NCBI GenBank assembly: GCA_023487865.1
Contig: JAMDBG010000003.1
Span: forward strand, 1-45,037
Origin: Deltaproteobacteria bacterium
GTDB lineage: Bacteria; Desulfobacterota; Syntrophia; Syntrophales; UBA5619
Direction: 5' to 3'
DNA length: 45,037 bases
Shown: positions 138-27,424 of the stretch, in pieces
How positions within the stretch are numbered: position 1 is the stretch's first letter
Layout: each line of letters opens with the position of its first letter
Translations under genes and position numbers: made by a program
The notes under the pieces: model-generated
The model's input: the letters and a program-made list of their open reading frames with translations, nothing else
What the model was told of the DNA's origin: nothing
The model's database searches: none

Positions 138-1760
138 CTATAGTTCTCGAACGGCGTCGAATTGCTGAGGATAAGGCGAAGGGTCCATCCTCGCCTCGAT
201 GAGCTTCGGCAAACCATCGGTGGAATTCAGAGCAGTGGCCAGCGCCCCCCTCAACTCATCCTCGGTTTCAACAACCCACGTCGGAATGCCGAAACACCTG
301 CCCAGGTCCATGTAATTCAACCTCGTAAAACCCGTCCCCCTTGGCACGCCGTAACCTTTTTTTACCTGCTTCACATCAATCAGGCTTAATCTGCCGTCCG
401 AGAAAATGACCATCACGATCGGCAACCTGTACTGCATCGCCGTCGCCAATTCGGGAAGGCGCATCATGAAACCCCCGTCGCCGCAAAGCGATACGACCAT
501 CCTGTCCGGATGCAGCAACTGAAGCGCCAGTGCAGCAGGTATGGCATACCCCATCGTTGCCAGACCATTGGACATGAAGAAGGTCCCCGGCAGATAGGCA
601 TCCCAGAGTTCGATGACCAGCAGTTTGTTGGCGCCGACATCGATCGTCAGTAGTGCATCCCGGGGGATCGATTCCCGTGTGGTGTTGATCACCTGCACAG
701 CCGACAAACCGTCGACGCTGAAATTGAGGACCGCTTTCGTGTTTTCCCTGTAAGCATCTATCTCAGCGGTCCGCCAGCGGGATTCTGCGTCGCCACATTG
801 ATCATAAAGACTTTTCAAGGTGGAACTGATTTCACCGACCAACTCGATATCCGCATGGTAGTTTTCTTCAACATTGGGAATCATGTCCAGATACACAATC
901 GGCTGCCGATAACTCCACTTTTTGGGAAGCAGTTCGACCGGATCCAATCCGATCGCTATGAGAAGATCACTCTTTTCAATGATCCGCTGCTCCAGGTTCC
1001 CACCCATGAACACCCCGAGAGACCAGGGATGATTGTCCGGCAGAGAACCTTTGGCCTTTGCCGTCTTGAAAGTGGGGATATTGAACCTTTCCACAAAGCT
1101 CCGCAATTGCGCAAACACTTCCCTTTTTGCCGCTGTAATTCCCAGTCCGACGATGGCGACAGGTCTTTTTGCCCTGCTGATCCTCTCCAATCCCCTCTTC
1201 AGGTCATTGGCGTCCACTTCCGGCCAGGATTCCTCATTACCGATCGCGTTTCCCGAATCCGCCACCTCGGATTGCGACAGGTTGTTCGGAAAATCGATAT
1301 GGACCGGTCCTTTTCTCGGCAGCTTCGCGATTTTGATTCCCCGGGCCAGCATTTCGGACCAATTGGTTTTCGTCAGCCCGGCCGACAGTTTGGTCACGGG
1401 CTTGAAGAGATCGGCATGATCGATCTTCTGTCGATAGGCCAACTCGACGATCTCGGCGCCATAACGATCCGTGAATGCCAGCACGGGCGATCTGTCCAGA
1501 TAGGCCTGGGCCAAACCGTTACACAGGTTCAAAGCGCCCGGTCCCAAAGTTGAAAGACAGGCACCGGGAACTCCGGTCACATCCCCGCAAACACCCGCCA
1601 TGATCGCCGCGGACGTTTCGTGCTGGGTCAGGATAAACTTTATTCCTTCGTCTTCCGACGTGTTCATCAGGTCGGCTGAGCTTCCCCCGCCCGGTATGCC
1701 GAACAGGTAGTTCACACCGGAGCCTTTTAATACTTTACTGACTCCCTGAGACATATTCAT
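138..1760 (-). CDS. Thiamine diphosphate-dependent enzyme, acetolactate synthase/sulfoacetaldehyde acetyltransferase-like family (substrate unknown)
   Basis: 540 aa ORF; N-terminal 'FGIPGG...QHETSAAIMA' with the ThDP catalytic Glu context, and C-terminal 'SLCGDGGFMM' GDG ThDP-binding motif. Confidence 0.85.
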   Translation of the reverse strand: MNMSQGVSKVLKGSGVNYLFGIPGGGSSADLMNTSEDEGIKFILTQHETSAAIMAGVCGDVTGVPGACLSTLGPGALNLCNGLAQAYLDRSPVLAFTDRYGAEIVELAYRQKIDHADLFKPVTKLSAGLTKTNWSEMLARGIKIAKLPRKGPVHIDFPNNLSQSEVADSGNAIGNEESWPEVDANDLKRGLERISRAKRPVAIVGLGITAAKREVFAQLRSFVERFNIPTFKTAKAKGSLPDNHPWSLGVFMGGNLEQRIIEKSDLLIAIGLDPVELLPKKWSYRQPIVYLDMIPNVEENYHADIELVGEISSTLKSLYDQCGDAESRWRTAEIDAYRENTKAVLNFSVDGLSAVQVINTTRESIPRDALLTIDVGANKLLVIELWDAYLPGTFFMSNGLATMGYAIPAALALQLLHPDRMVVSLCGDGGFMMRLPELATAMQYRLPIVMVIFSDGRLSLIDVKQVKKGYGVPRGTGFTRLNYMDLGRCFGIPTWVVETEDELRGALATALNSTDGLPKLIEARMDPSPYPQQFDAVREL

Positions 1761-1792
1761 GTGAACAATCTCCCCTTATGAAGAATGACGAC

Positions 1793-1860
1793 CCTGTAAA
1801 AAGTCGCAGACACCTTGAACTTGGGATGGCTTCATAAAAAGGCCGCAGGCAAGGCGCGCA
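1793..1860. repeat. Truncated copy of a dispersed repeat (second copy at 40723-40880)
   Basis: 'gtaaaaagtcgcagacaccttgaacttgggatggcttcataaaaaggccgcaggcaaggcgcgc' closely matches 40726-40790; stops just before the stop codon of the 1864-3045 gene. Confidence 0.7.
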
Positions 1861-1863
1861 CCG

Positions 1864-3045
1864 TCAAGAATAGATTTTTCTGGAAACATAAACGCGTCCA
1901 TCCATGATCCTGCGGGCCGTCCTGCCCACTGTGCAACTGACGACATGGGGTCCGCTCTTCCCAAACGTCGCTTCCACTTTCACATCCATTACCCCAGAAG
2001 GATGGCCGATGACAACCTCATTTTTCGCCGGTGCCGGTGATCCTCCGAAAACCACCCGGTTCACAACGGAATCCGGAATGACCGCCCCGATTGCCGCCGG
2101 TATTCCCGCAGTGATGGCGAATGTCTTATGCATCTTCCCCATGGCCATCACGCGGGCCAGCATGCTGACCGTTCCTTTTTCAATCTTTGCTCCGGTGATC
2201 GTCCAGTAATCCCTCGCCGGGGCGATGAACGAAATTTTCGGAATGGACTGGCTCACCTGAATCCCCATCAGTTGACCGACCTTCGTGCGGATGGCCTCCA
2301 GTTTCGTCCATACCCTCTCGTCCTGATTTAATCCCGCCGGTAGTTCATCCCCGCGGAGATTCAGTTCCTCGGCACGGACGAATGCCGTCGGATTCCCCGC
2401 ATCCACAATGGTGACTGCATATTTTTCACCTGTGTCCAGCGTCAACTCATCCACCGCATTTCCGGTGGGAAGAAGCCTCCCCGTGGTCGCCCCGCCCGGG
2501 TCCATGAAACTCAGCTCGATTCTGGCCCCGGTCCCCGGACAACCGTCAATCGCGTAATCCCCGTCCGGGAAAAACTTCCCTTTTTTCACCGGGACTTTTG
2601 CATAAATCATCTTCTTCGTATTGGTGTTATAGATTCGGACAACGGTGAAAGGTTCCACTGCTTTCACCAGCCCCTTATCGACTGCATAAGGGCCGACCGC
2701 CGAGCTGATATTTCCGCAATTGGCGGAGTAATCCACGAAGGCCTTGTCGATCCCCACGGCGCCGAACGTGTAGTTGATGTCCCGATCCGGTTCCCTGGCG
2801 GGGGCGATGACCGCCAGCTTGCTCGTGAGCGAATCGGCCCCGCCCAAGCCGTCGATCTGGCGGATATCGGGACTCCCAAATATGGACAGGATGATCCGAT
2901 CCCTCAGGGCAAGATCTCCCGGCAGGTCCTTCTCCAACAGGAAGATCCCTTTACTCGTTCCGCCCCGCATGATCGTGCAGGGAAATTGGGTTTTTAATTT
3001 CATCACTTCCCTCTCCATAAAGTCCGGGACATCCCCTGCCGACAA
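1864..3045 (-). CDS. PrpF-family isomerase (2-methylaconitate isomerase / 4-oxalomesaconate tautomerase-like)
   Basis: 'FPCTIMRGGTSKGIFLLEKDLP', 'DGLGGADSLTSKLAVI', 'NCGNISSAVGPYAV' are PrpF-family signatures; the start is probably the internal ATG (MKLKTQFPCTIMRGG). Confidence 0.85.
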   Translation of the reverse strand: MSAGDVPDFMEREVMKLKTQFPCTIMRGGTSKGIFLLEKDLPGDLALRDRIILSIFGSPDIRQIDGLGGADSLTSKLAVIAPAREPDRDINYTFGAVGIDKAFVDYSANCGNISSAVGPYAVDKGLVKAVEPFTVVRIYNTNTKKMIYAKVPVKKGKFFPDGDYAIDGCPGTGARIELSFMDPGGATTGRLLPTGNAVDELTLDTGEKYAVTIVDAGNPTAFVRAEELNLRGDELPAGLNQDERVWTKLEAIRTKVGQLMGIQVSQSIPKISFIAPARDYWTITGAKIEKGTVSMLARVMAMGKMHKTFAITAGIPAAIGAVIPDSVVNRVVFGGSPAPAKNEVVIGHPSGVMDVKVEATFGKSGPHVVSCTVGRTARRIMDGRVYVSRKIYS

Positions 3046-3161
3046 TCACCGCTGTCGTCAAGGGGATTCCCCCCGGAACGCTGACCGACGACCGTATCGG
3101 CGGCGGGCATCCGACACAAACCTCAATACCCGCGAACAAGCGGGCGCGCGCTTTCCATCAC

Positions 3162-4655
3162 CTATAATCCTTGCAGCAGCTTCGGTTTCTTGAACAGAGG
3201 ATAGACGATGGAGAAAACGGCCGCTGCCAGCAGAACTGCGCTGATGGGCCGGCTCACGAGGATCAGGGGATCCCCGAGAGAGAGCAGGAGCGATCTTCTC
3301 ATGGCGAGCTCCGCCATGTCTCCCAGGACGAGTGCCAAAATGGCCGGGGCGACGGGGATGTCGAATTTCCTCATCACATAGCCGATGAGTCCGAAGGCGA
3401 ACATGACAAAGAGGTCATCCACGCTGTTCTGCAATCCGAAGGCGCCGACCACGCAAAGGACGATGATCGCGGCGGAAAAGACTGAATAGGGTAGACGGTT
3501 TAACTCCAGAAAGAACCGGATCGCCATGATCGTCAATACCAGGAGGAAGAGATTGGAGAGGAGCATTGCGACAAAGATCCCGTAGATGATGTCCGGACGG
3601 GAGGAGAGCAGCATGGGACCCGGCTGCATCCCGTGGATCATGAAAGCGGCGATCATCATGGCGGTCGTGTTGCTCCCCGGCAGCCCCAGGGAGAGCAGGA
3701 TGGTCATGGATCCGCCAGTCGAGGCGTTGTTCGAGCACTCCGCGGCCATCAGGCCATCCACGGCGCCGTGGCCGAACTTCTCCGGTTCTTTCGAGGTCCT
3801 GGCCGCCTCACCGTATGCCAGGAATGAAGCGATGGTCGCCCCGGCGCCGGGCAGGGCGCCGACGACCGTTCCGATGATCGGGGAACGGATCATTACGTTG
3901 AACCAGTTCTTCCGATAGAGGGAAAACTCGGGCATCTCGGCCCTCATGCCGCGGTATCCGACGTGCCCCTTGTACTCCTTGAAAGGCTCCTCCGCTTCGA
4001 TGAGGATCTCCGAAACAGCCAGAAGCCCCACCATCGCTGTGACAAAATTGATTCCTCCCAAAAGCAAAGTCGTATCGAAGGTGAAACGTTCCCCTCCCGT
4101 GATGCCGTCGGTCCCGATCGTCGCCAGGAAAAGGCCGAAGAAGCAGGAAAGAAATCCCTTCAGCAGAGACCCCCCCGAAAGGCTCGAAACGACGCTTAAT
4201 CCGAGGATGGTGAGGGCGAAGTATTCGGGCGGACCGAATTTCAGGGCAAAATTGGCAATCAGGGGCGTCGCCACCATCATGACCAGGACGCTGAAGATCC
4301 CCCCGTAGATGGAGCTGAGCAGAAAAATCCACAGAGCAGATGCGGCATGACCCTGCTTGGCCAGCGCATGCCCTTCGATCACGGTGGGGACCGCGGAGGG
4401 TTCACCCGGGATGCCGAAAAGGATCGACGTGATGGAACCGCCGGTGATCCCTCCACAGTAGGCGGCCACCAGCATGCAGAAGGCTGTTATCGGCGACATC
4501 GTATAAGTGAACGACAACAGAAGGACGACGCCCATCGACGTGCTGATGCCGGGCAGTGCTCCCGCCAGCAAACCCCAGAGTCCCCCCAACACCATCGCCA
4601 GGATGTTCTGCGGGAGGAGGACGATTGCAAAGGCATTCCAGTAATGTTCCCACAT
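3162..4655 (-). CDS. tctA: Tripartite tricarboxylate transporter permease, TctA family
   Basis: 497 aa hydrophobic protein; 'GALPGISTSMGVVLLLSFTYTM', 'GIPGEPSAVPTVIEGHALAKQG', 'ALPGAGATIASFLAYGEA' typical of TctA. Confidence 0.93.
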   Translation of the reverse strand: MWEHYWNAFAIVLLPQNILAMVLGGLWGLLAGALPGISTSMGVVLLLSFTYTMSPITAFCMLVAAYCGGITGGSITSILFGIPGEPSAVPTVIEGHALAKQGHAASALWIFLLSSIYGGIFSVLVMMVATPLIANFALKFGPPEYFALTILGLSVVSSLSGGSLLKGFLSCFFGLFLATIGTDGITGGERFTFDTTLLLGGINFVTAMVGLLAVSEILIEAEEPFKEYKGHVGYRGMRAEMPEFSLYRKNWFNVMIRSPIIGTVVGALPGAGATIASFLAYGEAARTSKEPEKFGHGAVDGLMAAECSNNASTGGSMTILLSLGLPGSNTTAMMIAAFMIHGMQPGPMLLSSRPDIIYGIFVAMLLSNLFLLVLTIMAIRFFLELNRLPYSVFSAAIIVLCVVGAFGLQNSVDDLFVMFAFGLIGYVMRKFDIPVAPAILALVLGDMAELAMRRSLLLSLGDPLILVSRPISAVLLAAAVFSIVYPLFKKPKLLQGL

Positions 4656-4673
4656 GAGATGATACCTCGACGG

Positions 4674-5174
4674 CTAATAGAAAAGACGGCTGAATTCAGC
4701 AAAGATCCCCTCGCCCTTGGGAAATGCAATTTTGATGAATTTTGCGAAAACGAGGATCGTGATGGCGGTGACCAGTAACGGCGAGATGATCAGGACCGAT
4801 TTTCTTCTCTCTTCAAGCGCCAGGGCGAACGCAGGGATGAAAAGAAACGTCGACAGGATAAAACCGATCCAGGGCATAACGATGATATAGACGAGGAGAC
4901 AGACGATGCTGAGCGCGACTTTCCTCCGTCGCCTCCCTGCCACGGCACTCGCCTCCGGTGAGGATTCCTCAACCGCTCTGCCCTTTGCCTTGGCGATCGT
5001 CGCGATCAACCAGCACACGCTCAGGAGCACCGATACACCGAGGGAGAGCATGGGCCAGAAGCCGCTGCCCACTTCACCGAAGCGCCCGACCCCATGCAAT
5101 TTGACCGCCTCGTAAAACATGAACGAAAAAAAAGCGACGCAGAACGCGCCGAGGGCGATTTCACCTTTTTTCAT
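4674..5174 (-). CDS. tctB: Tripartite tricarboxylate transporter TctB-like small permease
   Basis: 166 aa, four predicted hydrophobic segments, located between tctC and tctA. Confidence 0.8.
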   Translation of the reverse strand: MKKGEIALGAFCVAFFSFMFYEAVKLHGVGRFGEVGSGFWPMLSLGVSVLLSVCWLIATIAKAKGRAVEESSPEASAVAGRRRRKVALSIVCLLVYIIVMPWIGFILSTFLFIPAFALALEERRKSVLIISPLLVTAITILVFAKFIKIAFPKGEGIFAEFSRLFY

Positions 5175-5252
5175 GGCATACCTCGATGATCACCGGCTTG
5201 CGGAGAAGGTTCCTGCTTCCGCAAGCCGATGCCGGATGTTGAAAAGGGAAAA

Positions 5253-6227
5253 TTACTTCACATAACCAAGATCCTTTAAAACTTCCGTGAAGAATTTGAC
5301 CTCGTCGTCCCAGTATTTTCTCGTTTCCTCGGGACCCAGGTAGCCCTGACGGGCATAAAGGTGATTATCCTGAACGAATTTCTTATAAACAGGGACATCC
5401 AGGGCCTTCTTGATCACATCGTGAAGATACTTTATCCGGTCCGGCGGTGTGCCCTTCTTCACCCCCCAGGCCCGCATCAGTCCGTGGGTGTAATTGATGC
5501 CAAGCTCCGCGCTGCACGGCACGTTCGGGAGGGCCGGATGCCGCTTTTCCATGATCACCGCGAGTGATTTGAGTTTACCGGCTTCGATCAGGGGGAGTGT
5601 CTCGGCAAGCTCTTCCACGGCGCCATGAATATGTCCGCCCATGATGGCCGCCTTGATCTCCGCCCCGGAATCGAACGGGACGAATGTCACTACCACTCCC
5701 ACTGCCTTGAAGAAAGCCACCGTCTGGATCTCCGACCACCCCCCCGGCGAGGTCCCGGCAAACTTCAGCATCTTGGGATTCTTCTTTCCATATTCGATCA
5801 GATCGGCCAGCGTCTTGAATTTGGAATCTCCGGAAATCGTCACTGCCGACGTATCCCACTGAATCCTCATGATAGGATCAAAATCCCTCAACAATTGTGC
5901 ACGAGTTTTCGGTTTGACGGCGTCGATGAGATGGGACGTGGTAATGGCGAGGACCTCATAACCGTCGGCGGGTTGCTGAGCGACATAGAGCATCCCCTTG
6001 GTCGCCCCGCCGCCCGGCATATTGGTGATCACCAGCGGAACCTTCAAAAGGGGTTTCAGTCCTTCGGCCACAGCCCTCGCCGCCGTGTCGCTCCCGCCGC
6101 CGACACCGAACGGAACGATAATCTCGATGGCCCGGTCGGGATACGCCGCCGCTGCGCTGGTTGAGATTCCCATCACACATCCGACAAGAAACAAAAACGC
6201 CATGACAAATATCTTTGTTGTCTTCAT
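5253..6227 (-). CDS. tctC: Tripartite tricarboxylate transporter substrate-binding protein, TctC (Bug) family
   Basis: Signal peptide, then 'YPDRAIEIIVPFGVGGGSDTAARAVAEGL' and 'ITNMPGGGATKGMLYVAQQPADGY'. Confidence 0.93.
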   Translation of the reverse strand: MKTTKIFVMAFLFLVGCVMGISTSAAAAYPDRAIEIIVPFGVGGGSDTAARAVAEGLKPLLKVPLVITNMPGGGATKGMLYVAQQPADGYEVLAITTSHLIDAVKPKTRAQLLRDFDPIMRIQWDTSAVTISGDSKFKTLADLIEYGKKNPKMLKFAGTSPGGWSEIQTVAFFKAVGVVVTFVPFDSGAEIKAAIMGGHIHGAVEELAETLPLIEAGKLKSLAVIMEKRHPALPNVPCSAELGINYTHGLMRAWGVKKGTPPDRIKYLHDVIKKALDVPVYKKFVQDNHLYARQGYLGPEETRKYWDDEVKFFTEVLKDLGYVK

Positions 6228-7276: not shown

Positions 7277-7740
7277 AATTCGCCATGGTGGAGAAAGTCC
7301 TCGACCTGGCAAGGGCAAACTCGCTCTGGCCGGTGACCTTCGGGCTGGCCTGCTGCGCTATCGAGATGATGTCCACCTCCATGTCCCGTTTCGACATCGA
7401 CAGGTTCGGGGCAGGCGTCTTTCGGGCCTCACCGCGCCAGGCGGATTTTATGATTGTCACCGGTACGGTCACCAAAAAAATGGCCCCCGTCCTTACCACC
7501 CTCTACGAGCAGATGCCTTCTCCGAAATGGGTCATCGCGATGGGCAATTGCGCCATCTCTGGGGGACCTTTCGTTTTCGAAGGCCAGTATAACATTGTGG
7601 AAGGCGTTGACCTTCTTGTCCCGGTCGACGTGTATGTCCCGGGATGCCCGCCGCGACCGGAAGCCCTTCTGGAGGGTTTGCTGAAACTGGAAGAAAAAAT
7701 AACGGGGACCAGAAGATTCCCCCGGGTCGAGAGTGCATAG
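7231..7740 (+). CDS. nuoB: NADH-quinone oxidoreductase subunit B
   Basis: '[24 protein letters not shown]', '[11 protein letters not shown]', '[16 protein letters not shown]' N2 cluster-binding motifs; the start could be 7231 (overlapping nuoA) or a later internal start. Confidence 0.95.
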
Positions 7741-9311
7741 TGAGCGGTATTGCTGAAGAGATCAAAGCGAGTGTCATGGGTGCCGAGCCGGTCGAGGTCT
7801 CCTATCCGGAAAAGGGGTATCACTGTGCCCTGGAGACAAGCCCGGATAAGCTGCCGGACATCGTAAGGTTATTCGACGAAAAACGCTTTTACCTGGAATG
7901 CCTGCTCTGCACGGATTACACCGATTATCTCGAGCTGGTCTATTTGTTTAATACGCACCTGTCACCCTGCCGCGTGAAAGTCACCCTGAAAGTCGATCCG
8001 CAGCAGCCCGTTGCCCCGAGCATGTCGTCCATTTACGCCTCCGCCTACTGGTACGAACGGGAAATCCACGAATTTTACGGCGTCCTTTTTACGGGACACC
8101 CCAACATGACGTATCTGTTCCTCCACAACGACATCCATGACTACCCCCTGCGGAAGGGCAAGGTTCCTGTCCCTCCTGAAGACAAAGAGCGGCTCGACTC
8201 CTTCAAGCCCGGCGAACAGGAGGATACCTTCTTCATCAATCTCGGCCCCCAGCACCCCAGCACCCATGGAGTGTTACGCGTCGTGCTGAAGATGGACGGG
8301 GAATACATCGAGCAGGCCGAACCGGTGCTGGGCTATCTGCACCGCATGCATGAAAAAATGGCGGAGAACAGGAGCTACCAGCAATTCCTCCCCAATACGG
8401 GACGCATGGACTACCTGGGACCGATGTCCTTCAACCTCGGGTACGTGCTGGCTGTAGAAAGATTATGCGCCATTTCCGTTCCGGATCGGGCCATATTCGT
8501 GCGGATCATCGCCACGGAGTTGAACAGGATCTGCAGCCATCTTCTGTGGGTCGGCGCTTATCTGGCCGATCTGGGCGCCCTCACCCCCTTTCTGTTCGTC
8601 TTCGACGATAGGGAACAGATTCAGGATGTCCTGGAAGGGATTACCGGATCGAGGCTGACGTACTGCTACTTCCGATTTGGAGGCCTATACAACGACGTGG
8701 ATGATCAGTTCATCGCGGGAACCAAGGCCTTCGTCAAGCGGATGTGGGGCCGTTTTTCGCTTTATGAAAAACTCGTTACGGGCAACGTCATCTTCGTCAA
8801 CCGAACCAAAGGGATCGGAACCATCACCGGGGAGCAGGCCCGGAAGTACGGCGTTGCCGGTCCGGTCCTCCGCTCCGCCGGGATCGCGTGCGATTTGCGG
8901 AAGGTGGAATCCTACTCGGCATACAATGAGATGGAATTCAATATCCCCGTGGGAGAACACGGCGATGCCCTGGACACGTATAAGATACGCATTGCCGAGA
9001 TGGAAAACAGCCTTCGGATCATAGAGCAGGCGCTTGCCAAACTACCCGGCGGCCCGTTCATGGCGGAAAAGGTTCCCAAAAAACTCAAACCACCCCGCGG
9101 CGACATCTACCAGGTCGTGGAAACGCCGCGCGGCGAGCTGGGCATATATATCGTGAGCGATGAAAGCGACAGGCCCTTGCGGATGAAGTGGCGCGTTCCC
9201 TCTTTTTCCAATCTGATGATCTTTCCGGAACTGGCCAGAGGGATGCTCCTGGCCGACGCGGTTGCCATCCTGGGGAGTCTTGACCTCGTGATACCGGAAA
9301 TAGACAGGTGA
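7740..9311 (+). CDS. nuoCD: NADH-quinone oxidoreductase fused subunit C/D
   Basis: The ORF track starts at 7644, but a GTG at 7740 overlaps the nuoB stop (TAGTG). N-terminal 30 kDa NuoC domain ('[25 protein letters not shown]') continues into NuoD ('[25 protein letters not shown]'). Confidence 0.93.
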
Positions 9312-19832: not shown

Positions 19833-20864
<1,032 letters not shown>

Positions 20865-20960
20865 GAGATGACAAACCGCAGGAACGGTTTGAGAAAAATC
20901 CCCTGCCCTGCCCTCTTAAAAGAGATGAGAAAACGGGGAAAACAGTAAGGAGCGATGCAC

Positions 20961-22241
20961 ATGGCTAAAGTGGAGGTTTTTGAAAAGAAGCGCCCGGTCC
21001 TCGGCATCAACAGTTTGGGAAGAATAGGCAAGCTTACCCTGTGGCACCATATCGGAAGGAAATATTTTCAGGAAATCATCGTCAATGTCGGAAGGGGCGT
21101 GGGCACAGGTCTTTCCGCTATCGCCCAGCTGATAGAAAAGGATGCCACATACGGCAACATCCACAGGTTCCTGTATGGCATCAAGGCGAAACGGATGATC
21201 CAGATTGTTGATGAGAAAAAAGGCAAGCTCCTCATCGACGGCATCCCCGTGACCATACTGCGTGAAGCACGAAATCCGGCTGAGATCGGCTGGAGAAATT
21301 ACGGGGTCGACGTAGTGGCGGAATGTACCGGCAAATACCAGGACCCCACCGTTGCCCCGGATGATAAGAACGGCTCCATTATCGGGCACCTCGCCAGCGG
21401 CGCCAAGGTCGCTATCAATTCCTCGCCGTTCAAAATAAAAAACAAGGGATTGCCGATGCCGGATGAAGCGGTCACGCTGATTTACGGGATCAATCACACG
21501 GCCTTCGACTACAAGAAACATCAGGTTGTGTCGGCGGCTTCCTGCACCACAACGGGTTTGGCGCACATGATTAAACCACTCCTGGAAAACGAAGCCACCA
21601 GCAAAATCCTCACGGCCTCCATGTCCACGGTTCATGCGGTCACAAACTCGCAGAGCATTCTCGATAAGACGCCGAAATCCGGCGATAAGGATCTACGCAA
21701 AAGCAGAAGTACGCTCAATAACATCATCCTCACCTCCACAAACGCCGCCGAGGCGCTCTCTCAGGTAATCCCGGAGGTGAAAGATATCGGTTTCATGGCG
21801 GATTCAATCAGGGTCCCCACGAATACGGAATCGCTCATCGTTCTGAATGCCACCTTCCAAACCCATCGAAATACGAGCGGCAAAGATACCCCCCTGACTA
21901 CCGAGATGCTCAATGATATCTACCGGCGGGCATCGGGGAATGATCCCGAGCATCTCGTTGTCTTTTCAGATGAACAGAATGTATCTACCGATCTGATCGG
22001 AGTGGATGCGGCGGTGGTGATTGAAGGACAGTTCAACCACATCAGGACGGCATTCATCGATATCGATCTCTCTCATGTCCCGGACCTGCCGGAGGCATTT
22101 CTCAAGACCTTGTCACAGTCGACCATGCGGATACCCGTTGTCCACGCCAAGATATTCGGCTGGTATGACAATGAATACGGCAGTTACACGAACAGACTCG
22201 GCGATTTGACCACATACATCCACAAGAGCCTGTTTCCATGA
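20961..22241 (+). CDS. Divergent glyceraldehyde-3-phosphate dehydrogenase-like protein
   Basis: About 426 aa; 'VLGINSLGRIGKLTLWHHI', 'VSAASCTTTGLAHMIKPLL', 'STVHAVTNSQ', 'DSIRVPTNTES', 'GWYDNEYGSYTNRLGDL'; the GAPDH fold is recognisable but altered. Confidence 0.88.
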   Translation: MAKVEVFEKKRPVLGINSLGRIGKLTLWHHIGRKYFQEIIVNVGRGVGTGLSAIAQLIEKDATYGNIHRFLYGIKAKRMIQIVDEKKGKLLIDGIPVTILREARNPAEIGWRNYGVDVVAECTGKYQDPTVAPDDKNGSIIGHLASGAKVAINSSPFKIKNKGLPMPDEAVTLIYGINHTAFDYKKHQVVSAASCTTTGLAHMIKPLLENEATSKILTASMSTVHAVTNSQSILDKTPKSGDKDLRKSRSTLNNIILTSTNAAEALSQVIPEVKDIGFMADSIRVPTNTESLIVLNATFQTHRNTSGKDTPLTTEMLNDIYRRASGNDPEHLVVFSDEQNVSTDLIGVDAAVVIEGQFNHIRTAFIDIDLSHVPDLPEAFLKTLSQSTMRIPVVHAKIFGWYDNEYGSYTNRLGDLTTYIHKSLFP

Positions 22242-22266: not shown

Positions 22267-25200
22267 TTAGAGGATTATTTTGAAAGATTCATCGGGGCCG
22301 ATTGCATGTTTTCCCGTATAGACGGCCCCGCTCCAGCCGTCAATACTGATGAAATCTCCGCTGCGGATGGTTTTATCGTCGACCCGGCTATACTCTTCCG
22401 ACTCATAGACATGGAGTTTATTGAAACCCACGACACCGACTTTGTTGAGTTGAGGGATCGTGACCGCCGCATGTGAAGTGCCGCCGCCCCTGGCAGTGAG
22501 GATACCTTCGACCTTCAGAATAATCCCGACGTCGTCCGGAACCGTATCAGGACGGATCAGAATGAGGGCTGTTTCCGGTTCCTTCTCCCGGAAATGTTCA
22601 ATCCCTTCTTCGGAATAGACCGCCCTGCCCGTCAATGCCCCGCCGCTCACCCCGATCCCCATGCCGAGAAAAGAGCGTTCCAGGTCGCCGTCACCCACAA
22701 AGGTTCTCACCATCCCCGTTTCCCTTTGAACCATATCGCGGGTCTGGAGGATATAGAGGCCCTTCTTTGTGGCATTTTCAAAGGTAAATTCGATTTCCTG
22801 ATGGCTGAATCCTTTATCATAGACCAGGAATTCCGCTATTCTGACAAGTTCCTTGTATATTTCCGGAAATCTCGTTTCCAGCGAGATCATCGACTCCCTT
22901 TTCTCCGCCGTCCTCTGCTTTTCCGATATGGGAAAGGTCTCCACGAGACCGGAAACGATATCGTCCCCCTGGACACCGAAAATGAAATCTCCATAAATGG
23001 AAACATCCTGCGATGAGCCCTTGGGATCCCGTGTCATGATGACACCCGAACCGGAGCATTCATTCAAGTTGCCGAACACCATGGCCTGGACGATGACGGC
23101 CGTGCCCCATTCATCGGAAAGATGCATCTGATGACGGAGGATCCTCGCCTGTTCGGAATTCCAGGAGGCGAAAACCTCCATAATGGCATGCTGGAGCTGC
23201 TGATAGGGATCGTTCGCAATCTTGATGCCTCTCTTTTCCATGGCCTCTTTATAGGAAAGGGCCAACAGTCTCATCTGTTCCGGATCGAACTGGATTTTCT
23301 TTTTCACGTCATAATGATTTTTAAAGGAGCTCATGATTTGATCGAAAATATTTCTCTCCAGCCCCTGGAACATTCCCCAGGTCTGCACGAGTCTCCGGTA
23401 AGAATCCCACGCCGCCCATTGATGGCCGTCCTGTCTGGCGAACCCCTCCGCAATCGTTTCATTGATGCCCACATTGAGAAAAGAACACATCATACCGGGG
23501 AGGGAAATCGTTGCACCGCTTCTCACGGAAAGGAGAAGGGTATTGTCGGGATCGCCGAAGGTTTTTCCGGTGATCCGCTCGAGATCTTTGATTTCCTTAC
23601 AGATCCTCTGCCAGAGGTCCTCAAAAATATATTCATACCCCATGACGCCTTCATAACCCCGAAAGACTTCGGTGGTGATCACAAAACCCGGCGGGACAGG
23701 CAGGTTGAAGGATGTCAGTTCCTTCAGGAAGTAAGCTTTGTTGCCGATGAGGATCTGGTTGTCCGTATCCCTGTTTTCTTTATAAAGGGTTGCTATGGCC
23801 AATTCCGGGATATAGGCCATGACAAGGTTGAGGATCTTCTTGTTGTCCTTGAATTTCTCCTGCTCCGCGCTCAGAGCCCTGATCACGGCATTAACGAAGT
23901 TATCCAGGACCTGCAGACCAAAGGCCGAGGCGATGATGGAACGGATGAAGTTTTCCGAGTATTGATAAAAGACCCGCTGCTCTTCCTTGGCGATGGTTTT
24001 TCTGTCCCTGTTTTCATCGTAATCCATTATCCGGCCGATAATGACAGGCAGATTGGAGCGATGGGCGTCGATATAGTAATCGCGGGTGATATCCTGAATG
24101 CCTTTGGCAATGAACTGGAAGATATCGATATACTGATCGATGGAAAACTGCCGTATCTGCAGGGCATTCGTTATATACTTCAGCTTTGCCACAAGTCCTT
24201 CCGTCGCCACCCCTTCCAGGTCGAGGGCTTTGACATAGAGCCACAGGTATTGATGAATCTTCATCAAGGTGCTTTTGGTAATGAACTTGAGGTTCAGGGA
24301 TTCCACCAACCTCTCAAAGAGCGTTGTCGCGAAACACTCGAGGCGGAGAGACAGACCCATGGCTTCGAATTTCTCTTCCCGGTAGGTCCCGTACATGGAA
24401 GGGATACCGGCGGCGATATGCCGTTTATAATAGATATTTTCAAATGAATCCGTCTTTTTTGAGGAAAGGATCCTCTCCTTCAAGCCTCCGATCATTCTGA
24501 GAATGATGATCAGGCTTCTGTAATCGTCCTTTTTTGCCAGTGACCGTTTGAGGGAGCGGACTTTTCGCGGATCGAGCAGGGCGGATGCTTCAAGGTCTTT
24601 CACGATATCGATATGCTGATGGTAATATTTCTTGTAGATCAGCTGATAGAACCTGATCATCAGCCCGGCACGCTCCTTTTCCCTTTCCAGGACGCCACTG
24701 ACTGCATTGATTTCTCTTGATATCTTCCCCTCATCCCATTGAAGAAGTGCAGAAACATCACCATGGGTCTTTTGAAACAGGCTGCCGAACAGGACATGCA
24801 GGTCGTCAAAATATTCACCTGACGCCCGAACCTCATTGAAAACCTCGCCAGGCAAGTGATCCTTCAGATATTCTCTTTCACCGGAATTCCAGTAACGAAA
24901 GATATCCTCGATGAAGGACACCAGACGACTGTTGCTTTCGACGTGCGACTGCTTTCTTAAAAAATAGATGAGTCTGTCATTTCTGGCGGAAAGCTCATCC
25001 ACCGCAGTCGATATCGCCCGCAACTCCCCCTCTGCACCGATCTCGCTGAAAAAAACCGGAAAAATTCTCAGGAGCTGTTTGACCAGATTGTAGGCGGGCA
25101 GGATATCTGAATTCAGCAGCAGGGAGATGTCCTTCTGAAGAAGGTCCGTATCCCGGACAAAAACCCCTCCCAGCTTCAGATTGATAATGAGGGCCGAGAG

Positions 25201-26481
25201 AAGTTTCTTTGTCCATCTTGGTTTGCGGGAAATAATCTCAAGCCAGGAGCGGATGTTTTTAATGTGAGTCGGGTTCACCCGGATTTGCCATTCAGCAGTA
25301 GGTCCCTGGACATCGGGATGCTGAAAACCGAAGGCCACAAGTTCTTCAAGGAAGGTATCCACGAGAGGATGGCTGTTGGACTCAAAAACTTCCTTCGCCA
25401 GTGTGGTGATGCAATCGAGGATGGAACTCCGGTATTGATTCTGTGCAACTGTCTTTTTCAATAAACGGAAGACCTTCTGCACAAGATCATTAACATTCCG
25501 ATCACTTTCTTCTTTTAACGCCCGCCCCAGACAGCGATTAATCTCGATCAGACACGCGTTGCGTATATCCGACAGTCCGTCAACATTCATCATATTGAAA
25601 AGAAAATCGAGTTTCACAAGATAACGGCGGCCTTTAAAAGCGTCGGATTTTTCGAGGGCATCCGCAATGACAAGGTATCCGTTGGCGATCTGCACATGGT
25701 CGGGCAGATCCAGGTAGGGTGAAATCGGGTCCGGAACAGTCAGCACCTGCCGGTCGAGGACCTCCAGACGGGCGAGCAGCTCACGGATATGTTGATGGGA
25801 AAGGGGCATGATCAGCTCTCGATACGCGTCCTTGTCTTCTTTGGTCTCGCCCTCCGCGGAGAACCATTGGGAAGGATCCGCTTGCGTCAGCCAGAAACGG
25901 TATGTCGATCTGAATACGGACGAGAGAAGCCCACTGACCTCATAATGCTCCGTCTTGATTGGAATCTCCATTAAAAGCTTTGCCGTCGCCTTCATATAAC
26001 TAGATGATTTTTTTAGTAAATTGTTATGATTCCGTGACAGATCGGCGAGCAAACGAAAGAAGGGAGAAAACAGGGGGGTGTTTCTCTCAAGCAGATGGTT
26101 GCTTTTGGAAAGAACGGTATTGAGAAACTCAAAGCAGTAACGGACGGCACTGTCCCGGACCTCTTCGTCCTTGGCCGAAGAGAGGACGACAAGATAAATA
26201 TCCGCCAACTTTTTCAGTGCGGGCAATCCCCTTTCATGGGTGTTGAAATCATAGAAATCGCCGATGGAAAGGCCCTTGAGCTGGGTAAGAACATATTCCC
26301 AGTTCACAAAGGGGTGGTGAAGCTCGATAAGAAGCTCTTCCGTCCGTTTCAACACCCCGTAATGGTTCTTCGCGACATCCAGGAGTATCCTGTATTCGTC
26401 GGGGATCTGCACAACTGCCCTGGTTCGCTCCAGATTGATTTCCAAGGCGCTCAAGGGTTGTGTATCTACTTTTGTATCCAT
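22267..26481 (-). CDS. PEP synthase/PPDK-like phosphotransferase: ~900-aa N-terminal region of unknown function, ATP-grasp (PPDK N) domain, C-terminal phosphohistidine domain; no PEP/pyruvate barrel
   Basis: 1404 aa; 'LIGNKAYFLKELTSFNLPVPPGFVITTEVF', 'LLLSVRSGATISLPGMMCSFLNVGIN', 'GSGVIMTRDP'; His domain 'GILTARGGGTSHAAVTIPQLNKVGVVGF' close to the C-terminus. Confidence 0.85.
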   Translation of the reverse strand: MDTKVDTQPLSALEINLERTRAVVQIPDEYRILLDVAKNHYGVLKRTEELLIELHHPFVNWEYVLTQLKGLSIGDFYDFNTHERGLPALKKLADIYLVVLSSAKDEEVRDSAVRYCFEFLNTVLSKSNHLLERNTPLFSPFFRLLADLSRNHNNLLKKSSSYMKATAKLLMEIPIKTEHYEVSGLLSSVFRSTYRFWLTQADPSQWFSAEGETKEDKDAYRELIMPLSHQHIRELLARLEVLDRQVLTVPDPISPYLDLPDHVQIANGYLVIADALEKSDAFKGRRYLVKLDFLFNMMNVDGLSDIRNACLIEINRCLGRALKEESDRNVNDLVQKVFRLLKKTVAQNQYRSSILDCITTLAKEVFESNSHPLVDTFLEELVAFGFQHPDVQGPTAEWQIRVNPTHIKNIRSWLEIISRKPRWTKKLLSALIINLKLGGVFVRDTDLLQKDISLLLNSDILPAYNLVKQLLRIFPVFFSEIGAEGELRAISTAVDELSARNDRLIYFLRKQSHVESNSRLVSFIEDIFRYWNSGEREYLKDHLPGEVFNEVRASGEYFDDLHVLFGSLFQKTHGDVSALLQWDEGKISREINAVSGVLEREKERAGLMIRFYQLIYKKYYHQHIDIVKDLEASALLDPRKVRSLKRSLAKKDDYRSLIIILRMIGGLKERILSSKKTDSFENIYYKRHIAAGIPSMYGTYREEKFEAMGLSLRLECFATTLFERLVESLNLKFITKSTLMKIHQYLWLYVKALDLEGVATEGLVAKLKYITNALQIRQFSIDQYIDIFQFIAKGIQDITRDYYIDAHRSNLPVIIGRIMDYDENRDRKTIAKEEQRVFYQYSENFIRSIIASAFGLQVLDNFVNAVIRALSAEQEKFKDNKKILNLVMAYIPELAIATLYKENRDTDNQILIGNKAYFLKELTSFNLPVPPGFVITTEVFRGYEGVMGYEYIFEDLWQRICKEIKDLERITGKTFGDPDNTLLLSVRSGATISLPGMMCSFLNVGINETIAEGFARQDGHQWAAWDSYRRLVQTWGMFQGLERNIFDQIMSSFKNHYDVKKKIQFDPEQMRLLALSYKEAMEKRGIKIANDPYQQLQHAIMEVFASWNSEQARILRHQMHLSDEWGTAVIVQAMVFGNLNECSGSGVIMTRDPKGSSQDVSIYGDFIFGVQGDDIVSGLVETFPISEKQRTAEKRESMISLETRFPEIYKELVRIAEFLVYDKGFSHQEIEFTFENATKKGLYILQTRDMVQRETGMVRTFVGDGDLERSFLGMGIGVSGGALTGRAVYSEEGIEHFREKEPETALILIRPDTVPDDVGIILKVEGILTARGGGTSHAAVTIPQLNKVGVVGFNKLHVYESEEYSRVDDKTIRSGDFISIDGWSGAVYTGKHAIGPDESFKIIL

Positions 26482-26674: not shown

Positions 26675-27424
26675 ATGATTCGACCGGTCATCGCTGGAAA
26701 CTGGAAGATGAATAAGACCGTAGCGGAGGCGGTGGATTTTGCCGTGCGTCTCCGGACGGCATACAGCACCCCCCCGGATCGGGAAGTAATCATCGCTCCT
26801 CCGTTCACAGCGCTTCAGGCAGTGGCGGACACCATCCGGGGGTCATTCATCCTTCTTGCCGCCCAGAATCTGCATGAGGAGGAAAAGGGGGCCTATACCG
26901 GTGAGATCTCAGGCAAGATGCTTCGCGAGGCAGGATGCAACTGCGTCATCATCGGCCACTCAGAGCGTCGCACCCTCTTTACCGAAAGCGATGACCGCAT
27001 CAACCGGAAGCTACGGGCGGCCCTGACGGCCGGCCTGAGACCGATCTTCTGTATCGGAGAGTCACTCCGACAGCGGGAAGAGGGTGAAACGGAGGCGGTC
27101 ATAGAGCACCAATTAAAAGAGGGATTGAATAATTTGACTGCCAATGATATAGAATCATGTGTCGTCGCCTATGAGCCGGTATGGGCGATCGGTACCGGCA
27201 AAACGGCGAGCCCGGAACAAGCCGAGAAGGTTCATCGCTTCATCCGGGAATGGATCGTCCGGCGGTACGGTCCGAAAAATGGGGCGGAGCTGGCCATCCT
27301 CTATGGGGGCAGTGTCACGCCGAAGAACATCGCCGAGCTGATGGCACAGCCGGATATCAACGGGGCGCTGGTAGGCGGTGCCAGCCTGGATGTCGATTCT
27401 TTCATCCAGCTTGTCGGTTGTTGA
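26675..27424 (+). CDS. tpiA: Triosephosphate isomerase
   Basis: 'VIAGNWKMNKT', 'VIIGHSERRTLF', 'VAYEPVWAIGTGKTASPEQAE', 'LYGGSVTPKN'. Confidence 0.97.
   Translation: MIRPVIAGNWKMNKTVAEAVDFAVRLRTAYSTPPDREVIIAPPFTALQAVADTIRGSFILLAAQNLHEEEKGAYTGEISGKMLREAGCNCVIIGHSERRTLFTESDDRINRKLRAALTAGLRPIFCIGESLRQREEGETEAVIEHQLKEGLNNLTANDIESCVVAYEPVWAIGTGKTASPEQAEKVHRFIREWIVRRYGPKNGAELAILYGGSVTPKNIAELMAQPDINGALVGGASLDVDSFIQLVGC

What the first reader, a model, noticed from the sequence alone, without database searches (positions are those of the whole stretch)
22267..26481. 1404-aa PPDK-like phosphotransferase with a ~900-aa unknown N-terminal region and no PEP-binding domain
The C-terminal ~500 residues (about 23760 down to 22267) contain a PPDK/PEP-synthase-type ATP-grasp domain followed by a phosphohistidine swivelling domain. 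The His of 'GGGTSHAA' is encoded at 22471-22473, about residue 1337. The protein ends about 65 residues later, so the TIM-barrel PEP/pyruvate domain of PPDK and PEP synthase is missing. ATP-grasp plus a C-terminal His domain without a PEP barrel is seen in rifampicin phosphotransferases, so the acceptor substrate is open. The long N-terminal region reads as mostly helical with no family I recognise; it may be the acceptor-binding or a regulatory module. It sits inside a glycolytic gene block, which suggests a link to central carbon phosphoryl transfer, but that is inference.
Basis: partly seen in the sequence, partly recalled or inferred. Interest (0 to 1): 0.62.

Follow-up and report, generated by a model that had tools for sequence, protein, structure and literature searches.

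The report
GAPDH-paired dikinase without PEP barrel
This bacterial enzyme has the energy-loading half of pyruvate phosphate dikinase joined to a 900-residue helical arm instead of the usual pyruvate-binding domain, and across 591 sampled genomes it occurred in exactly the same 133 as an unusual second GAPDH, so the two almost certainly work together at an unrecognised step of sugar metabolism.

Summary
The 1404-aa ORF (22267-26481, minus strand) is one intact gene. It carries a PPDK-type ATP-grasp domain (residues 902-1257), a phosphohistidine swivelling domain (1271-1391, His1337), no PEP/pyruvate barrel, and an all-helical N-terminal region with no Pfam match. All catalytic residues are invariant across 34 diverse homologues. 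It is not a broken PPDK: full-length copies occur in Desulfobacterota, a few Acidobacteriota, Riflebacteria and Gemmatimonadetes, and this genome has an ordinary PPDK elsewhere.

The main new result is its partner. The convergent neighbouring gene (20955-22241) encodes a divergent 428-aa GAPDH (Gap2) with intact catalytic residues but without the NAD-selecting Asp. In 394 Desulfobacterota and 197 Acidobacteriota genomes, X and Gap2 occur in exactly the same genomes (128/128 and 5/5), even where the genes are unlinked. In two complete genomes Gap2 is the only GAPDH found; PGK is still present there.

Best reading: X loads a phosphoryl group from ATP onto His1337 and delivers it, through the helical arm, to the Gap2 step (3-phosphoglycerate/1,3-bisphosphoglycerate/GAP), probably in gluconeogenesis. 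Partnership is strongly supported; the acceptor is inferred. The closest precedent is VadK, a barrel-less PPDK that regulates metabolic enzymes.

The parts
22267..26481 (-). X: 1404-aa barrel-less PPDK-like phosphotransferase
25282..26481 (-). X residues 1-400: N-terminal helical solenoid; no similarity to the f73 sister family in the best pairwise BLASTP alignment
   Evidence: AF2 model; sister alignment starts at residue 402 in the best pair
23782..25281 (-). X residues 401-900: helical core shared with the f73 sister family; holds most invariant N-terminal residues (R488, D495, D502, R509, K510, H513, E681, K686, R687, H688)
24379..24444 (-). X residues 680-701: conserved beta-hairpin (motif YYKRHIAAGIPSMYGTY), the main sheet element in the N-terminal region, low-confidence tip; candidate functional arm
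22711..23778 (-). PPDK-type ATP-grasp domain, residues 902-1257 (K915, R987, E1231, Q1246, R1248 = PPDK K22, R92, E323, Q335, R337)
   Evidence: Foldseek to 1kbl E 1.5e-29
22309..22671 (-). Phosphohistidine swivelling domain, residues 1271-1391
22471..22473 (-). Codon of catalytic His1337 (GGGTSHAA), aligned with the PPDK catalytic His
20955..22241 (+). gap2: divergent 428-aa GAPDH, obligate partner by co-occurrence
19857..20864 (+). gap1: canonical type I GAPDH (NAD type, keeps the Asp of NDxxD); immediately upstream of X in several other lineages
26675..27424 (+). tpiA, divergent neighbour of X

Best explanation
X is the dedicated phosphotransferase partner of Gap2 at the 3-phosphoglycerate / 1,3-bisphosphoglycerate / glyceraldehyde-3-phosphate step. 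SHOWN by sequence and models: an intact PPDK-type ATP-grasp and phospho-His domain, no PEP barrel, a 900-aa helical N-terminal module, and exact co-occurrence with Gap2. INFERRED from PPDK chemistry: ATP (with Pi, as in PPDK) phosphorylates His1337, giving AMP and PPi; the His domain then swings away from the ATP-grasp. INFERRED from anatomy and co-occurrence: it swings to the conserved helical core (residues 400-710), where Gap2 and its substrate are presented. MOST LIKELY acceptor (inference): the carboxylate of 3-phosphoglycerate, giving 1,3-bisphosphoglycerate handed directly to Gap2, which reduces it, probably with NADPH. The net effect is an ATP -> AMP + PPi driven, and so nearly irreversible, gluconeogenic entry to triose phosphate that runs beside PGK and Gap1. 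The same reaction reversed would recover ATP from PPi. Partnership with Gap2: about 0.85. The specific acceptor: about 0.3.
For: (1) X and Gap2 profiles run on the same 394 Desulfobacterota genomes give 128 and 128 genomes, identical sets once 3 partial hits to a sister family are set aside; in 197 Acidobacteriota genomes, the same 5. (2) Pairing holds when the genes are unlinked: in single-contig G071 X is at 0.31 Mb and gap2 at 2.73 Mb; also G224 and G416. (3) Within the window's own genus both are present (G000, G002, G006) or both absent (G001, G003, G004, G005). (4) gap2 lies beside X in 62 of 80 loci, convergent or in a gap1-X-gap2-pgk operon; in G085 X stop and gap2 start overlap as ATGA. 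(5) X/Gap2 distance matrices correlate at r = 0.94 over 57 loci (shared ancestry contributes). (6) In complete genomes G085 and G120 Gap2 is the only Gp_dh_C protein and PGK is present. (7) Gap2 keeps the catalytic Cys, His and phosphate-site Arg/Thr but in 59/59 lacks the NAD-selecting Asp and has an invariant Gly-Arg there. (8) All PPDK ATP-site residues and the catalytic His are invariant in X.
Against: No assay exists. PGK is present in every X-positive genome checked for it except a few incomplete MAGs, so 1,3-BPG can already be made, and a second route is not obviously needed. The N-terminal module matches no known small-molecule site; its only fold hits are HEAT-like scaffolds with poor TM-scores, which suits protein docking at least as well as substrate binding. 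The sister family shares residues 402-1393 but its genomes lack Gap2, so the core did not evolve only for Gap2.
Confidence: 0.4

Rival explanations
1. X is a regulatory kinase of Gap2 (VadK-like). It autophosphorylates at His1337 according to ATP, Pi, AMP and PPi levels, and its HEAT-like arm binds Gap2, phosphorylating or gating it so that the gluconeogenic GAPDH is active only at high energy charge.
For: VadK, a PPDK without barrel, autophosphorylates on its His and binds methylcitrate synthase and dehydratase (PMC13400623). The N-terminal arm resembles protein-binding solenoids. The sister family has a same-length (592-aa) sigma54-type regulator adjacent in all three loci seen, a signalling context.
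Against: A pure regulator would be expected to be lost somewhere while the enzyme stays; no sampled genome of 591 has Gap2 without X. VadK has no 900-aa N-terminal module.
Confidence: 0.3
2. X is a small-molecule dikinase with an unidentified acceptor (for example glycerate or another C3-C4 acid or sugar), bound in the conserved helical core; Gap2 acts on a later intermediate, so the link is one of pathway rather than complex.
For: RPH, HpeHI and PpsAB show that this catalytic pair is reused for diverse small molecules (PMC12167813). Many invariant charged residues in 400-710 suggest a ligand site. Near-complete pairing would also follow from a two-step pathway.
Against: Where Gap2 is the sole GAPDH found (G085, G120) it most simply makes or uses 1,3-BPG/GAP, and it often sits next to pgk, which ties the pair to the GAPDH step itself.
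Confidence: 0.22
3. X is an ATP-driven replacement of PTS Enzyme I, feeding HPr/EIIA proteins.
For: In Thermodesulfobacteria the gap1-X-gap2 genes directly follow hpf-ptsN-rapZ-EIIA-like genes. 9 of 23 tested X-positive genomes lack the EI N-terminal domain against 0 of 14 X-negative.
Against: 14 of 23 X-positive genomes keep Enzyme I; the PTS linkage is lineage-specific, whereas the Gap2 linkage is general.
Confidence: 0.04
4. X is a degenerate or mis-assembled PPDK, or hides a PEP barrel in its N-terminus.
For: None beyond the shared catalytic half.
Against: Own genome has an ordinary PPDK on C64; the AF2 N-terminal model is helical; full-length orthologues occur in well over 100 genomes; X is separate from local PPDKs in the tree.
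Confidence: 0.01

Closest known systems
VadK (Rv1127c), barrel-less PPDK of mycobacteria (PMC13400623)
   Same: PPDK-derived ATP-grasp plus phospho-His domain, PEP/pyruvate barrel missing, tied to a central-metabolism enzyme by interaction.
   Different: VadK is described as only those two domains; X adds ~900 helical residues and pairs with a divergent GAPDH rather than methylcitrate enzymes. A direct sequence comparison with VadK was not run; X scores 294 bits against a short PPDK model (NF004531, cut-off 456).
Pyruvate, phosphate dikinase (PPDK; TIGR01828, 1kbl)
   Same: ATP-grasp and swivelling His domain with the same key residues; about 30% identity in the Foldseek alignment.
   Different: No PEP/pyruvate barrel, shorter linker between the two domains, 900-aa N-terminal module.
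Rifampicin phosphotransferase and two-component dikinases HpeHI / PpsAB
   Same: ATP-grasp and His swivel domains serving a non-PEP acceptor.
   Different: Weak sequence match (39 bits), different domain order, no RIF-type acceptor domain.
NADP-type gluconeogenic GAPDH (B. subtilis GapB-like) for the partner Gap2 (comparison from memory)
   Same: Second GAPDH beside a canonical one; loss of the NAD-selecting Asp.
   Different: About seven conserved insertions, SCTTN changed to SCTTT, obligate pairing with X; below the TIGR01534 cut-off (280 vs 367).

Membership tests
PPDK | ATP-grasp domain with K22, R92, E323, Q335, R337 equivalents | tested here: met
   K915, R987, E1231, Q1246, R1248 invariant
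PPDK | Phosphohistidine domain with TSH motif | tested here: met
   T1335-S1336-H1337 invariant; PF00391 E 3.6e-12
PPDK | C-terminal PEP/pyruvate TIM barrel | tested here: not met
   Protein ends 67 aa after His; no Pfam match elsewhere; N-terminal model all-helical
PPDK | Scores above NCBIfam equivalog cut-off | tested here: not met
   TIGR01828 367.7 vs 843.45
PEP synthase | Equivalog score and barrel | tested here: not met
   TIGR01418 51.3 vs 739.75
Rifampicin phosphotransferase | ATP-grasp / RIF-binding / His order and family score | tested here: not met
   NF041857 39.4 vs 999; order differs
VadK-like barrel-less PPDK | PPDK-derived, ATP-grasp plus His domain, no barrel | tested here: met
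   definition from PMC13400623
VadK-like barrel-less PPDK | Two-domain protein without a large extra module | tested here: not met
   900-aa N-terminal region
VadK-like barrel-less PPDK | ATP-dependent autophosphorylation of the His | not testable with these tools
   needs purified protein
Glucan, water dikinase | His domain precedes a C-terminal ATP-grasp; starch-binding N-terminus | tested here: not met
   Order here is ATP-grasp then His; no starch-binding Pfam match. GWD order recalled, not looked up
GAPDH type I (for Gap2) | Catalytic Cys and His, phosphate-site Arg | tested here: met
   C197, H227, R286 in 59/59
GAPDH type I (for Gap2) | Scores above NCBIfam equivalog cut-off | tested here: not met
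   TIGR01534 280.5 vs 367.2

The most novel reading that the evidence does not exclude
X and Gap2 form a two-protein machine that reduces 3-phosphoglycerate to glyceraldehyde-3-phosphate using ATP -> AMP + PPi and NADPH. It would be a PGK-independent, effectively irreversible gluconeogenic step (or, run backwards, a PPi-driven ATP-recovering glycolytic step), with 1,3-bisphosphoglycerate channelled through a 900-aa helical arm.
Probability: 0.22. Interest if true: 0.88.

Novelty: new variant of a known kind. Interest (0 to 1): 0.64.

Why it matters
Glycolysis/gluconeogenesis is assumed to be fully mapped. About a third of the sampled Desulfobacterota genomes (a phylum of sulfate reducers, syntrophs and sulfur disproportionators) carry this pair, and in two complete genomes Gap2 is the only GAPDH detected. 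If X drives or gates Gap2, flux models and energy budgets of these low-energy anaerobes need revision, and PPDK-type dikinases gain a new class of target. The exact pairing makes a focused biochemical test possible.

Tried and rejected
PGK replacement: PGK is found in 56 of 61 relatives, in all 41 good-quality ones, in this genome (C36), and in all 23 X-positive genomes of a second check. Cryptic TIM barrel or frameshifted barrel ORF: rejected (25-bp gap to gap2). Defence system: no PADLOC hit. PTS Enzyme I substitute: not general. Fold of the N-terminus: PDB Foldseek gives only HEAT/karyopherin-like solenoids at E ~1e-3 and TM < 0.2, so no homology is claimed. Profile search of PDB sequences with the N-terminal alignment: only designed helical repeats at E > 0.06. 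Pfam on 32 N-termini: no shared family. Papers: no description of this family or of the Gap2 pairing found in the library searched. The tree places X apart from local PPDKs, but the sister-family branch is long and the root is only a midpoint.
Full report
WHAT IS THERE. The ORF at 22267-26481 (minus strand) encodes 1404 residues without interruption. Pfam finds PPDK_N at 958-1257 and the PEP-utilising mobile domain at 1306-1385, and nothing in the first 900 residues. Alignment to solved PPDKs extends these to 905-1261 and 1271-1397. No barrel follows: 67 residues remain after His1337, and the next gene, gap2 on the other strand, ends 25 bp away.

THE CATALYTIC HALF IS PPDK-LIKE. NCBIfam scores are 368 bits for PPDK, 294 for the short PPDK model PRK05878, 51 for PEP synthase and 39 for rifampicin phosphotransferase; none reaches its family cut-off. 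The AF2 model of residues 205-1404 matches PPDK 1kbl at E 1.5e-29, with PEP synthase and RPH much weaker. The ATP-site residues (K915, R987, E1231, Q1246, R1248) and T1335-S1336-H1337 are invariant in 34 diverse homologues. The genome has a separate ordinary PPDK on C64, and in a tree of the catalytic half the local PPDKs group apart from X (X as a single group has only moderate support, 85/69).

THE N-TERMINAL HALF. The AF2 model of residues 1-905 (mean pLDDT 87, pTM 0.80) is helices throughout, plus one beta-hairpin at 680-701 carrying the conserved motif YYKRHIAAGIPSMYGTY. Foldseek finds only HEAT-type scaffolds (karyopherins, CRM1) with E near 1e-3 and TM below 0.2, so the fold is solenoid-like but no homologue is claimed. 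Invariant residues cluster at 385-530 and 660-710, including R488, D495, D502, R509, K510, H513, E681, K686, R687 and H688: what a docking or acceptor site would look like. A sister family of about 1490-1550 aa (L147-L149) shares residues 402-1393 in the best pair at 27% identity. So residues 400-900 plus the catalytic half form an older core; residues 1-400 were outside the best alignment.

DISTRIBUTION. Full-length relatives were found in most of 80 loci of the GTDB collection: Syntrophales/Smithellaceae, Syntrophorhabdus, Thermodesulfobacteriota including the isolate Thermosulfurimonas dismutans, Acidobacteriota, Riflebacteria and Gemmatimonadetes. With the N-terminal profile alone, 128 of 394 sampled Desulfobacterota genomes have it; three further weak hits are the sister family. 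In Acidobacteriota it is rare: 5 of 197.

THE PARTNER. The gene convergent with X encodes a 428-aa GAPDH relative (Gap2), 35% identical to the canonical gap1 beside it. gap2 neighbours X in 62 of 80 loci; many of the rest are cut by contig ends. In Thermodesulfobacteria the order is gap1-X-gap2-pgk, often followed by tpiA. In G085 the X stop and gap2 start overlap as ATGA. A Gap2 profile run on the same genomes gives 128 of 394 and 5 of 197, exactly the genomes with X. This is not only linkage: in single-contig G071 and G224 and in G416 the two genes are far apart, and X has other neighbours (G071) or sits behind gap1 alone (G416; G224). Within the window's own genus both genes are present or both absent. 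Outside this sample, 15 of 17 X-bearing assemblies have Gap2 whole or as fragments; the two exceptions have X on contigs cut just beyond it and unknown completeness. Among the relatives, G019 has X without a detected gap2 and G012 has a gap2 end at a contig edge without X; both may be assembly gaps. X and Gap2 distances correlate at r = 0.94 over 57 loci, to which shared ancestry contributes.

WHAT GAP2 IS. Gap2 keeps the catalytic Cys197 and His227, the Thr and Arg of the substrate-phosphate site and the Arg residues near the inorganic-phosphate site. In 59 of 59 sequences it lacks the Asp that selects NAD and has an invariant Gly-Arg instead; SCTTN is SCTTT; and it carries about seven conserved insertions. 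By analogy with known NADP-type GAPDHs (own knowledge) this suggests NADP(H), hence gluconeogenic use; that is inference. In the complete genomes G085 and G120 it is the only Gp_dh_C protein while PGK is present, so there Gap2 most simply serves the GAPDH step; other GAP-oxidising enzyme types were not searched. G393 matches the T. dismutans genome G454 in place and score, which puts G085 and G120 in the same family; such organisms are not known as sugar users (own knowledge), again pointing to gluconeogenesis.

MECHANISM. Shown: intact catalytic residues, missing barrel, helical module, obligate pairing. Inferred from PPDK chemistry: ATP plus Pi gives AMP, PPi and phospho-His1337. Inferred: the His domain swings from the ATP-grasp to the N-terminal core, where Gap2 and its substrate are presented. 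Because no sampled genome in 591 keeps Gap2 without X, I favour X being needed for Gap2's reaction, with 3-phosphoglycerate (or 1,3-BPG) as the phosphoryl partner. The main rival is regulation. VadK, a PPDK lacking the barrel, autophosphorylates on its His and binds methylcitrate synthase and dehydratase (PMC13400623), so a barrel-less PPDK can act on an enzyme rather than on a metabolite. PGK's presence counts against a strict need for a second route to 1,3-BPG. Present data do not separate the two; the coupled assay under decisive steps would.

NOVELTY. Known kind: the PPDK/PEP synthase/RPH/VadK dikinase superfamily. New: the 900-aa helical module, the wide and uniform family, and exact pairing with a divergent GAPDH. 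I found no description of it in the papers searched, but that library lacks most subscription journals.

Noticed in passing
L147 3873-8330, L148 3734-8365, L149 3349-7830 (genomes G330, G395, G410): Sister family of X (about 1490-1550 aa, same domain order, 27% identity over X 402-1393) in genomes without Gap2; in all three loci a 592-aa sigma54-type regulator lies directly downstream, so this dikinase may work in signalling.
   Followed up: partly
L102, L106, L110, L168: In Thermodesulfobacteria the X-gap2 block follows hpf/ptsN/rapZ/EIIA-like genes; 9 of 23 tested X-positive genomes lack PTS Enzyme I (PF05524) while 14 of 14 X-negative have it.
   Followed up: partly
L170, L173, L174: In three lineages where gap2 is unlinked, X (with gap1 in L170 and L174) sits next to genes that read as glycogen/starch synthase and chorismate synthase (identified by eye only).
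   Followed up: no
window 7644-9311: Fused NuoC-NuoD (Complex1_30kDa + 49kDa) in a complex I cluster where no NADH-module genes (nuoEFG) were noticed between about 6.9 and 18 kb.
   Followed up: no
window 138-6227: Thiamine-diphosphate enzyme, PrpF-like isomerase and a tripartite tricarboxylate transporter set (large and small membrane subunits, binding protein) in a row; identified by eye only.
   Followed up: no
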